Positions 16,975 to 19,040 of a stretch of DNA of 26,530 nt are shown here, one piece after another. Source of the stretch: Flavobacterium psychrophilum (GTDB lineage Bacteria; Bacteroidota; Bacteroidia; Flavobacteriales; Flavobacteriaceae); the NCBI GenBank assembly GCA_943325515.2, contig CALPPS020000028.1, forward strand, positions 1 to 26,530, given 5' to 3'. Within the stretch, counting starts at the first letter, position 1; every line of letters starts with the position of its first letter. Both the position numbers and the translations under genes were made by a program. Under the pieces are notes generated by a model that worked only from the letters and a program-made list of their open reading frames with translations, searched no databases and was not told the DNA's origin.

Positions 16975-18033
16975 TTAACTTTTTTGTTCTTTATTAAAAT
17001 ATACCAAGTAGTAATACATTTGTTTTTCTTCGTCCCAACCTTTTTCAACATATTTCTCAGCACTTTCTGGGTTGATGAAATCTAATTTGATTTGGATATT
17101 TGTGTCTAAATTGATCACGTTTTTGATAGATTTTCTAGCATCGCTTACGGCAGCATTGGCAATTGGAAAGTTAGTAATGTCTTCAATACTATATTTTTCA
17201 CCTTTATCTACTTTATAATTTTTGAACTCAGGTATTAAGTCTGGATTATCTAAAACTTCGTTCAAGAAATTACTTTCTTCAAACTGATCGTTTTTGGCAA
17301 AATAATTAACAGAACGATTCATGAACATTACTTCTTCTTTTTTGTCTTCAGCAGGGAAAACGACATCTTTTGCAAAACCTTGACAGAATTTCAAATACTT
17401 TTTAGTGAAGAAATTTTCATCCTGAAACGCATCTACAGAAAGGAAATGTTCTAACCAATAACGTGCATCATAGCGATTGCTATCTACCGTTAAAATTTTA
17501 TACCCTTCTTCTTTTTTATGATTAAAAATTAAGCAACCTTTATCTAGTTTGTTGAGGTTAATACCTTGTTGTAAAATCATTTCTAGAGTAGTGCCTTTTT
17601 CTTTAAACTGCATAAAGTCAGTTTGAATTTCACTTTTAAAGACACCGATAGCATCAACTACATTATTATCAATATTCAAATTGGTAATATGCGCCACATA
17701 AACTTCTCCATTCTTTATGTGTGGATGATTAGATTGTTCAAAAAGATGTTTGGTAATCTTTTTTGATACTTCATGAGTGTCACTTGGATTAGTGAAAATT
17801 TCGGTAACCAAATTGAATATATCGTTATATTCCAAATCGACTTCGTGTGCAAACTGAAAATAGTTTTCTTCTTTTTCTCGAAATGGTTTGAAAAAATATT
17901 CCTTTAACAACGGAACAATTTCATCATTCAAATTATAGGGTTGGTCTGAAAGGAAAATAGCTTCGTTTCGGCTTTTGTTTCCCACACGATGTATGGATAA
18001 GGATTCTATGTGAGCATTGAATAGGTTGATCAT
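16975..18033 (-). CDS. Nucleoid-associated protein, NdpA/YejK family
   Basis: 352 residues, matching the 37-kDa nucleoid-associated family (NdpA/YejK) over its length, which is close to the family's ~335-350. It begins MINLFNAHIESLSIHRVGNK and has the conserved middle VYVAHITNLNIDNNVVDAIG then VFKSE. LEMILQQGINLNKLDKGCLIFN and SNRYDARYWLEHFLSV follow. The C-terminal part is IKLDFINPESAEKYVEKGWDEEKQMYYYLVYF. It is thought to bind DNA in the nucleoid; its precise role is not established. The start lies only 7 bases after the left inverted repeat of the four-helix cassette, so any promoter or leader must lie inside that cassette or further upstream. This implies co-transcription with the pRiA4b-like gene. 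A terminator follows 36 bases after the stop. Confidence 0.88.
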   Translation of the reverse strand: MINLFNAHIESLSIHRVGNKSRNEAIFLSDQPYNLNDEIVPLLKEYFFKPFREKEENYFQFAHEVDLEYNDIFNLVTEIFTNPSDTHEVSKKITKHLFEQSNHPHIKNGEVYVAHITNLNIDNNVVDAIGVFKSEIQTDFMQFKEKGTTLEMILQQGINLNKLDKGCLIFNHKKEEGYKILTVDSNRYDARYWLEHFLSVDAFQDENFFTKKYLKFCQGFAKDVVFPAEDKKEEVMFMNRSVNYFAKNDQFEESNFLNEVLDNPDLIPEFKNYKVDKGEKYSIEDITNFPIANAAVSDARKSIKNVINLDTNIQIKLDFINPESAEKYVEKGWDEEKQMYYYLVYFNKEQKS

Positions 18034-18040
18034 TTTTTTT

Positions 18041-18075
18041 AAGTTGCTGAGTAACTAGGTGACTGAGTTGCTGAG
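18041..18075 (-). repeat. Left arm of inverted repeat: four tandem octamers (consensus TNRCTGAG)
   Basis: After AAG at 18041-18043, four back-to-back 8-base units occupy 18044-18051, 18052-18059, 18060-18067 and 18068-18075. The first and last are TTGCTGAG and the third is TGACTGAG. Compared with the reverse complement of 18467-18501 it is identical at 26 of 35 positions by hand alignment. It lies between the frame-restored stop of the four-helix gene and the ndpA start. Confidence 0.8.
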
Positions 18076-18076
18076 A

Positions 18077-18428
18077 CTATTTTAGCTTTTTTGAAAAGGA
18101 AATAATCATTGCTTCTAGTTCTTCAAGTTTCTTCATATATTTTTTTAAATTCGATTTCGTTTAAATAGTTGATGTTTTTTGCAATTTCGATTTGTGTTTG
18201 AAACTCAAACAAGGAACTGATTGCAATGTTTATAAATCTATAAAATTCTTTGTTGCTCTCTCTACCATATCCTTCAGCAATATTACTTGGTAGTGAAATA
18301 GCACTTCTTCTAATTTGAGAAGTCAATCCGAATAATTCTTCTTTTGGAAAATTTTGTGTTAACTCATAGGTTTGGGCAACTAATGTCATTGATTTTTGCC
18401 AAATAAATAAATCTCTAAAGATTTTCAA
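18077..18428 (-). pseudogene. Four-helix-bundle protein (S23/IVS family), frameshifted
   Basis: The intact part reads 101 residues from 18428 (FRDLFIWQKSMTLVAQTYEL, QIRRSAISLPSNIAEGYGR, FYRFINIAISSLFEFQTQ), which is the four-helix-bundle / 23S rRNA IVS protein family. The frame then stops at 18123. One extra base in the run at 18128-18130 is enough to explain this. Skipping it restores LEELEAMIISFSKKLK and a stop at 18077-18079, giving about 116 residues, the normal family length. There is no ATG: the possible starts are TTG at 18428 or ATA at 18443, the latter perhaps a mutated ATG. Both features suggest recent decay, though a single-base sequencing error is possible. Family members are small RNA-associated-like proteins of unclear function, often linked to mobile intervening sequences. 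Confidence 0.8.
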
Positions 18429-18466
18429 TTTTTTTGATTTTATAGTTTACTCAAATATAAAAAAAA

Positions 18467-18501
18467 CACAGCAACTAAGCTACTCAGTCACTCAGTGACT
18501 T
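18467..18501 (-). repeat. Right arm of inverted repeat: four tandem octamers (consensus TNRCTGAG)
   Basis: On the minus strand the units occupy 18491-18498 (TCACTGAG), 18483-18490 (TGACTGAG), 18475-18482 and 18467-18474, preceded by AAG at 18499-18501. The arm starts 2 bases after the stop codon of the pRiA4b-like gene and is complementary to 18041-18075 with nine mismatches. Confidence 0.8.
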
Positions 18502-18503
18502 CG

Positions 18504-19040
18504 TTAATTCCAATTCTCTTCAAATCCAAAGTCTTCAAAGCTGTCATCTCCACTAAACATGTCTAAATCTTCTTCGTCTAAGTCATCTTCAAATTCATCG
18601 TAGAAGTCTTCGCCTTCGGCTTCAAATTCTTTTTCGGGAGCAACGGCTGGTAATTCACCGTGAGAGAATAAAAGATTTGGATAAATCACACCTATTTCTT
18701 CTTCTTCAACAGCTGCAAGTTCAACTAAAAATGTCCACATATTTATAAAATCATATACATAGATAATCTTGGTTTGGTCTTTGCCTAATAATTGATTTAA
18801 AGCATAATCGCTCATGATTTTTTGTTCACCTGCTACATCGCCAGTGTCAAACATCGGAATTTCATCTTCTTGATTCCATTGGTCATCACAAGTATAAAAG
18901 GAAGCCACTTCTAAACCATCAAAACCAAAGGCGTTTACGATGGCATTATGCAAGTCTTCAAGAGTATCTTCTTCTTGGATAGCAATGTCTCTGAAAACAT
19001 CTTCTTCGGCATCGAGAATTGCTCTGAATTTATAAATCAT
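18504..19040 (-). CDS. Plasmid pRiA4b ORF-3-like protein with strongly acidic C-terminal tail
   Basis: 178 residues. The N-terminal ~130 (MIYKFRAILDAEEDVFRDI, TLEDLHNAIVNAFGFDGLE, ASFYTCDDQWNQEDEIP, IIYVYDFINMWTFLVEL) match the pRiA4b ORF-3-like / IS1096 passenger family, found on plasmids and chromosomes. No catalytic residues are established for it. The last 43 residues hold 22 Asp/Glu (for example FYDEFEDDLDEEDLD), an acidic tail that could mimic nucleic acid or be a flexible binding segment. It is first in a same-strand series with the four-helix frame and ndpA. A TAACTTTG -7-like box lies 22 bases upstream of the ATG. The family call is confident; the function is unknown. Confidence 0.85.
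   Translation of the reverse strand: MIYKFRAILDAEEDVFRDIAIQEEDTLEDLHNAIVNAFGFDGLEVASFYTCDDQWNQEDEIPMFDTGDVAGEQKIMSDYALNQLLGKDQTKIIYVYDFINMWTFLVELAAVEEEEIGVIYPNLLFSHGELPAVAPEKEFEAEGEDFYDEFEDDLDEEDLDMFSGDDSFEDFGFEENWN

What the first reader, a model, noticed from the sequence alone, without database searches (positions are those of the whole stretch)
18041..18501. Octamer-built inverted repeats around a decayed four-helix-bundle gene: candidate IVS-like cassette
Each arm is exactly four 8-base units (consensus TNRCTGAG) preceded by AAG, and the two arms are complementary at 26 of 35 positions. They enclose an S23/IVS-type four-helix-bundle frame. The unit leaves only 2 bases to the upstream stop and 7 bases to the downstream ATG, as expected if it inserted into a tight operon junction. 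In RNA the arms would form a stem with the gene in the loop, as in 23S rRNA intervening sequences. I know of no description of octamer-structured ends for a protein-gene-associated copy, though I could not search.
Basis: partly seen in the sequence, partly recalled or inferred. Interest (0 to 1): 0.78.

Follow-up and report, generated by a model that had tools for sequence, protein, structure and literature searches.

The report
Gene cassette between short-word inverted repeats
A small decaying gene for a four-helix-bundle protein sits between mirror-image runs of an 8-base word, and related genes in other bacteria often sit between similar runs made of other words, so this looks like one worn copy of a widespread, little-recognised kind of movable cassette.

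Summary
In detail: both arms are AAG plus four octamers, complementary at 26 of 35 positions, around an interrupted PF05635 gene (E 2.9e-38) between pRiA4b-like and ndpA-like genes. It is one member of a class. Of 79 related junctions, 34 carry a PF05635 gene, from two clades with different arm words; the rest carry gene-less inverted repeats of other words, little, or nothing. Of 90 PF05635 genes examined, 75 have inverted arms at score 18 or more, against 12 of 196 small control ORFs. The word follows the protein clade, even between different sites. Arrays of a word are commoner in genomes with the matching clade for three of four words tried. 89 of 90 cassettes, 25 of 26 distinct sites, lie in sense between co-directional genes. 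The arms co-vary, without a G-U signature. Cyanobacterial plasmid copies and PF13366 genes often show the same design. Best reading: a mobile IVS-related cassette whose protein recognises its own word. Binding and movement are inferred, not shown.

The parts
18467..18501 (-). 5' arm (relative to the gene): AAG + four octamers of the form TNRCTGAG
18041..18075 (+). 3' arm (relative to the gene), written on the + strand: AAG + four octamers; 26 of 35 positions complementary to the 5' arm
18123..18428 (-). interrupted PF05635 / TIGR02436 four-helix-bundle ORF, 101 aa, TTG start
18077..18122 (-). C-terminal remainder of the same gene in a different reading frame (relict)
   Evidence: read by eye
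18452..18459 (-). TATATTTG, promoter-like box in the leader; TAnnTTTR boxes occur in 23 of 28 leaders of CTRAG-type cassettes at this junction (window included) against a shuffled mean of 10.7, maximum 16
   Evidence: the Bacteroidetes -7 motif is recalled
18504..19040 (-). upstream host gene, pRiA4b ORF-3-like (PF07929); stop codon 2 bases from the 5' arm
16975..18033 (-). downstream host gene, NA37/ndpA-like (PF04245); start codon 7 bases from the 3' arm

Best explanation
The unit is a decaying copy of a mobile cassette. A PF05635 protein gene, often with its own promoter-like box, lies between inverted arrays of a short word that belongs to that protein clade (CTRAG plus three free bases here). 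Cassettes settle in the gap between two co-directional genes, in sense. The protein (inferred) recognises its own word, probably in the folded hairpin, and helps the unit to be copied or moved by host machinery. Gene-less hairpins with the same word are non-autonomous relatives served in trans (inferred). Shown by sequence comparison: architecture, inheritance of the word with the protein, co-occurrence of word and clade, turnover at a site, sense orientation, arm co-variation, purifying selection. Inferred: binding, movement and its chemistry.
For: Inverted arms at score >=18 around 75 of 90 PF05635 genes, against 12 of 196 small and 48 of 366 large control ORFs and 74 of 628 genes of all kinds in one contig. 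Protein identity tracks arm-word similarity among different-site pairs: r 0.26, 0 of 2000 permutations; of 27 different-site pairs above 70% identity 70% share the word, 16% of 31 pairs at 60-70%, 0-1% in each bin below 60%. One clade (word AGTC) lies at three different junctions, which I read from recalled sequence features as nuoF/nuoG, clpP/clpX and sufC/sufD. The window's junction needs 37 state changes on a 79-row host tree. AGTC pattern matches number >=8 in 9 of 9 genomes with the clade gene and 2 of 29 without; CTRAG 17 of 19 against 6 of 19; TTAGC 2 of 2 against 0 of 36. Own arms pair better than arms swapped between 28 elements, 0 of 10000 permutations. One polarity in 46 of 48 array pairs picked by eye. 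dN/dS below 0.5 in 176 of 176 close pairs, median 0.11.
Against: No transposase, nuclease or target-site duplication was identified for PF05635 cassettes. RVT_1 reverse transcriptases are absent from 23 of 38 genomes. In the arm test, swapped arms of other PF05635 cassettes score high too (95th percentile 20, 99th 27.4), and only 13 of 90 own pairs exceed that 99th percentile. The AATAGA word showed no gene-array match. Two genomes hold many AGTC matches without the clade gene (G018 17, G035 21), three hold many CTRAG matches without one (G008, G017, G037), and AGTC arrays also associate with the CTRAG gene (p 0.003), so ancestry confounds the co-occurrence. The cut of 8 was set after seeing the counts. 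Reversed-pattern controls were not empty in 5 of 38 genomes for CTRAG and in more for AGTC. Protein-word binding is untested.
Confidence: 0.58

Rival explanations
1. RNA-level IVS-like element: the arms pair in the polycistronic mRNA, RNase III (or similar) cuts the stem, and spread happens through RNA (reverse insertion or reverse transcription), which would explain the sense orientation in operons.
For: PF05635 is the protein family of 23S rRNA IVSs, which are excised at a stem by RNase III (PMC4990558, passages); sense orientation at 25 of 26 sites; the fold of the window unit closes on its arms; distant homology to the DGR protein Avd (PMC10053308, passages).
Against: G-U pairs (112) are fewer than A-C mismatches (172) in the sense strand of 91 elements, and the own/swapped ratio is about the same (40:65 against 1110:1693); RVT_1 absent from 23 of 38 genomes; gene-less hairpins also occur between convergent genes.
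Confidence: 0.15
2. Host-serving hairpins: short-word hairpins are terminators or mRNA-processing and stability signals between genes, and the PF05635 protein is an RNA-binding partner that regulates them; there is no true mobility.
For: Word-array sites in an 800-kb contig: 26 co-directional, 4 convergent, 1 divergent, 1 inside a gene; 6 of the 26 are arms of PF05635 cassettes; purifying selection on the protein.
Against: Replacement by unrelated words or nothing at one junction; same-clade cassettes at unrelated junctions.
Confidence: 0.15
3. Slippage by-product: low-complexity hairpins arise in neutral operon gaps and PF05635 genes merely tolerate the same places.
For: Words are low-complexity, unit numbers vary, and some arrays are long plain tandems.
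Against: Link to PF05635 against other genes; word inherited with the protein clade across sites; fixed polarity; arms co-vary.
Confidence: 0.07

Closest known systems
23S rRNA intervening sequences (IVS) with S23/IVP ORF
   Same: PF05635 protein gene between inverted arms that fold into a stem; scattered presence and absence (PMC4990558 and PMC2801512, passages)
   Different: Lies in protein-operon junctions, not in rRNA; arms are arrays of short clade-specific words; gene-less hairpins of the same word occur genome-wide in relatives; no sign of G-U tolerance in the arms
REP/REPIN elements with RAYT transposases (recalled)
   Same: A single protein gene flanked by short palindromic units, with many gene-less relatives in the same genome
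   Different: PF05635 is not a HUH transposase; the units are degenerate words of about 7-10 bases in tandem, and the word changes from clade to clade
Cyanobacterial short tandemly repeated repetitive (STRR) sequences (recalled) and TAACTGA heptamer arrays of Beggiatoaceae and Bacteroidetes (PMC4679880; abstract, outline and section 12 read)
   Same: Short words in tandem in intergenic gaps, absent at the same gap in relatives
   Different: In what I read these arrays are not linked to PF05635 genes or to inverted flanks
DGR accessory protein Avd
   Same: Distant four-helix-bundle homology (bAvd 1.9e-5, below its cut-off; DivGenRetAVD 1.5e-5, below its cut-off)
   Different: No reverse transcriptase among the 7 neighbouring proteins scanned with Pfam, and RVT_1 absent from 23 of 38 relatives

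Membership tests
23S rRNA IVS | Encodes or is related to PF05635 protein | tested here: met
   E 2.9e-38
23S rRNA IVS | Located inside a 23S rRNA gene (helix 25 or 45) | tested here: not met
   between pRiA4b-like and ndpA-like genes; the only Rfam match in the window is a tRNA
23S rRNA IVS | Inverted ends that form a stem | tested here: met
   sequence and predicted fold only
23S rRNA IVS | Excised from RNA by RNase III without religation | not testable with these tools
   needs RNA
REP-RAYT | Palindromic units with the gene's own hairpins dispersed in the genome | tested here: inconclusive
   met in relatives; the window's own genome is not held
REP-RAYT | HUH (Y1) transposase gene | tested here: not met
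   the gene between the arms is PF05635
Diversity-generating retroelement | Reverse transcriptase and template/variable repeats beside Avd | tested here: not met
   no RT among the 7 neighbouring proteins scanned; template/variable repeats were not searched
Classical insertion sequence / MITE | Target-site duplication and defined terminal inverted repeat recognised by a transposase | tested here: inconclusive
   no duplication seen by eye comparing filled and empty junctions; no transposase family found for the cargo
STRR-type repeats | Tandem degenerate words of about 7 bases in intergenic gaps (definition recalled) | tested here: met
   the window's word is 8 bases; other cassettes about 7-10

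The most novel reading that the evidence does not exclude
PF05635 and PF13366 proteins are the missing drivers of short-word repeats in bacteria. Each protein clade recognises its own word of about 7-10 bases in a hairpin and spreads cassettes and gene-less hairpins into operon gaps by a transposase-free route. The heptamer arrays of cyanobacteria, the octamer hairpins of Flavobacterium and the IVSs of 23S rRNA would then be faces of one element class.
Probability: 0.3. Interest if true: 0.92.

Novelty: new variant of a known kind. Interest (0 to 1): 0.78.

Why it matters
PF05635 'four helix bundle' genes are common (38 of 38 relatives' genomes and 61 of 80 genomes of a phylum sample) and, as far as I know, have no settled function outside IVSs. 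Finding them embedded in inverted arrays of a clade-specific word joins an orphan family and an old puzzle (where short tandem intergenic words come from) into one testable question: does the protein bind its own word and move it? It may also explain why such genes turn up inside CRISPR operons of cyanobacterial plasmids, where they could be mistaken for functional partners.

Tried and rejected
Rejected: chance. Rejected: the octamer as the defining feature, since many other cassettes use other words. Rejected as the main driver: a reverse transcriptase in the same genome. RNA-stem selection was tested through G-U against A-C counts and not supported. The AATAGA pattern did not separate genomes with and without the nearest gene clade. 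No plasmid match to the unit's DNA, no phage match to a relative's protein, no plasmid match to one PF13366 cassette, no Rfam family other than a tRNA in the window. Structure prediction and the large protein search were not run; solved relatives exist (2gsc, 2rld).

Counting notes. The 38 genomes are those of 38 of the 80 loci, picked for better assemblies. The 90 PF05635 sites are mostly the best-scoring of 267 matches there, so weak and broken copies are under-sampled; they fall into 26 distinct sites. The control ORFs come from the 80 junction loci, not from the 90 sites, and their windows start 30 bases inside the ORF. Pattern counts are overlapping matches and include the cassettes' own arms, 2 to 4 in the six genomes whose listing shows them. 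Clade limits were set by me: AGTC E <= 1e-30 (77-100% identity), CTRAG E <= 1e-35 (56-100%), TTAGC 94% or more. Of the 6 genomes counted as 'without' the CTRAG gene that have 8 or more matches, three (G012, G020, G033) do hold a diverged or broken CTRAG-type gene at the junction (L023, L041, L071). Hairpin labels on the host tree were given by eye; L033 was left out (too short), L079 is masked at the junction, and 23 of the tree's 74 inner branches are weakly supported, so 37 changes is not a firm minimum. One search used 91 elements with score 18 or more, after dropping duplicates of the same junction. Without the closeness limit dN/dS over 1901 pairs has median 0.58 and reaches 1.36, where sites are saturated. 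In the phylum sample 11 of 29 (the best-scoring loci) reached score 18 against 7 of 174 swapped pairs; orientation was not tested there. The 21 plasmid copies are 21 of the 40 records; L272 and L273 are near copies, as are L277 and L280. 12 of 21 reached 18 against 16 of 168 swapped pairs. PF13366 had no control of its own.

Full report
Observation. The two arms are as described: AAG plus four octamers each, at 18041-18075 and 18467-18501, complementary at 26 of 35 positions; pieces taken at 517 positions in the window reach at most 24. The 7 octamer-pair matches in the window lie in or overlap these arms; shuffles give 0.25. The enclosed gene is PF05635 (E 2.9e-38), called 'four helix bundle protein' by NCBIfam, with solved relatives 2gsc and 2rld. 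It is interrupted near its C-terminus. The neighbours are a pRiA4b ORF-3-like gene and an NA37/ndpA-like gene.

The junction in relatives. A search with the pRiA4b-like protein kept 80 loci of Flavobacterium or close kin; 79 hold both host genes. In 34 of these a PF05635 gene lies between them: 27 with CTRAG- or CAAAG-type words, as in the window, and 7 of a distant clade (32-36% identity) whose arms are built of a GTTTAA-type word. Many of the others carry a short gene-less inverted repeat made of other words, and some have only 22-45 bp between the genes. On a tree of the host proteins (78 loci and the window) ten states, labelled by eye, need 37 changes; 23 of 74 inner branches are weak. 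For example L050, L051 and L073 (cassette) sit beside L052 and L063 (AATAGA hairpin). The unit is therefore most simply read as an insertion in an often-reoccupied gap. Elements mostly replace one another; a partial second copy is seen in L069 and L076.

The rule. All 38 genomes searched have PF05635 genes, 267 matches in all. I examined 90 sites. Aligning upstream sequence to the reverse complement of downstream sequence gave a score of 18 or more in 75 of 90, against 12 of 196 small and 48 of 366 large control ORFs from the 80 junction loci; in an 800-kb contig 74 of 628 genes of all kinds reached 18, PF05635 genes included. A stricter control, arms swapped between cassettes, has median 12 and 95th percentile 20 but a 99th percentile of 27.4, because cassettes share words, and 13 of 90 exceed that. 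The arms are runs of short words, and the word differs between cassettes: CTGAGTTG, TTAGACTGAC, AGTATTAAG, GGTTGTC, TTAGTCC, GTTTAATCG, TTAGCTT, AGTCTTAAT, GGTTGAT and others. Among pairs at different genomic sites the word follows protein identity (r 0.26, 0 of 2000 permutations): of 27 pairs above 70% identity 70% share words, of 31 pairs at 60-70% 16%, and in each bin below 60% 0-1%. The AGTC clade lies at three unrelated junctions (the gene names nuo, clp and suf are recalled from their sequences). Gene and arms therefore appear to travel together.

Gene-less relatives. CTRAG octamer arrays occur in 27 of 38 genomes, up to 110 overlapping matches in one; the reversed-pattern control is empty in 33 of 38. 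Many are close inverted pairs, and 46 of 48 pairs picked by eye keep one polarity. AGTC matches number 8 or more in 9 of 9 genomes with the AGTC-clade gene and in 2 of 29 without. CTRAG matches reach 8 in 17 of 19 against 6 of 19, and three of those six do hold a diverged or broken gene. TTAGC matches reach 8 in 2 of 2 against 0 of 36. A fourth word, AATAGA, gave no such separation. The cut of 8 was set after seeing the counts; rank tests give p 9e-6, 1e-4 and 9e-4. Genomes are related, and AGTC arrays also associate with the CTRAG gene (p 0.003), so these counts are suggestive rather than conclusive.

Orientation and sites. In 89 of 90 cases, at 25 of 26 distinct sites, the cassette lies between two co-directional genes and in sense with both; one (L130) is antisense. 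In 800 kb of one Flavobacterium contig 70 of 120 small genes lie so. In that contig 32 word-array sites divide into 26 co-directional (6 of them cassette arms), 4 convergent, 1 divergent and 1 inside a gene, against 334, 69 and 84 intergenic gaps of the first three kinds. Of the CTRAG-type cassettes at the ndpA junction 23 of 28 carry a TAnnTTTR box ahead of the gene (shuffled mean 10.7), so sense orientation may not be needed for expression.

DNA or RNA. The arms of an element pair better with each other than with arms of other elements at the same junction (mean 24.3 against 20.0; own above its row mean in 22 of 28; 0 of 10000 permutations), so they change together. If selection acted on an RNA stem, G-U should outnumber A-C; the reverse is seen (112 against 172 in 91 elements), with about the same ratio for swapped arms. 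This argues for recognition or repair at the DNA level, or for arms renewed together when the cassette moves. The RNA fold of the window unit does close on its arms. Close gene pairs are under purifying selection (176 of 176 pairs below 0.5, median 0.11), so the protein matters to the element or its host.

Breadth. In a phylum sample around one of these genomes 61 of 80 genomes have PF05635, and 11 of 29 examined loci reach score 18 against 7 of 174 swapped pairs. Twenty cyanobacterial plasmid copies and one of Gemmatimonadota show short-word runs on both sides in most cases by eye, such as (GGGAACA)n, (TTAGCTT)n, AGCAGGGG, GAGTCAG and GGGCAGGA; 12 of 21 reach score 18 against 16 of 168 swapped pairs, and L289 has direct rather than inverted runs. 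Of the 18 with annotated genes on both sides, 14 are in sense between co-directional genes, 3 antisense and 1 mixed. The 5' arm has more G than C in 90 of the 98 elements with score 18 or more. PF13366 (GxxExxY) genes also carry inverted short-word arms: 16 of 30 at 18 or more, several clear by eye and some gapped chance matches, with no control of their own. The class may therefore hold at least two gene families.

Literature. Nine searches for IVS, S23, four-helix-bundle, GxxExxY or Avd with repeats, and for short-word repeats, listed no title or abstract start that links PF05635 genes with flanking word arrays (only the listed top rows were seen). A tenth, for PF05635, TIGR02436 or 'S23 ribosomal', found one paper, on retroelements. 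Closest are the TAACTGA heptamer paper PMC4679880 (abstract, outline and section 12 read) and the Coxiella IVS paper PMC4990558 (passages). PMC10053308 (passages) notes the PF05635-Avd likeness. PMC10910872 (one legend passage) names 23S rRNA IVP among the domains of a CRISPR figure. PMC5088731 uses STRR as a fingerprint (passages). PMC2801512 describes Campylobacter IVSs (passages). PMC5524665 lists four helix bundle genes in F. columnare (passages). Only the open library was searched, so subscription papers may hold a description.

Verdict. The feature is real and is a worn member of a widespread cassette class related to IVSs by its protein. That the protein recognises its own word and drives spread is the best reading (0.58) but untested.

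Noticed in passing
L274, L276, L281 (cyanobacterial plasmids): PF05635 cassettes sit between cas6 and cas4 (L274, L276) and between cas10 and a Cmr3-family gene (L281); they may be insertions rather than CRISPR parts.
   Followed up: partly
L291-L320, e.g. L294, L305, L307: PF13366 (GxxExxY) genes are also often flanked by inverted short-word arms such as CGCAAAG and CACAGAG.
   Followed up: partly
L222:2704-2878 and other places in L201-L240: About 100-170 bp inverted-repeat elements with TTGTCATTTCGA near their ends, MITE-like, several copies in one contig; not of the short-word kind.
   Followed up: no
L013, L020: Contigs titled Candidatus Nitrotoga and Rhizobium MAGs hold a clear Flavobacterium-like pRiA4b-ndpA junction, probably binning errors.
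   Followed up: no
98 elements with arm score 18 or more in L081-L170, L241-L269, L270-L290: The 5' arm has more G than C in 90 of 98 elements, although the words differ.
   Followed up: partly
G017:C7:44836 and 46479; G033:C3:74964 and 76697; G011:C217:6646 and 9467: Two PF05635 genes lie within about 2-3 kb of each other in these genomes.
   Followed up: no
L069 and L076, junction: Second copy of the 3' arm and of the gene's tail after the cassette, as if a partial second cassette or duplication.
   Followed up: no
G038:C9:17604-18890: Runs of CTRAG octamers on one strand over more than 1 kb.
   Followed up: no
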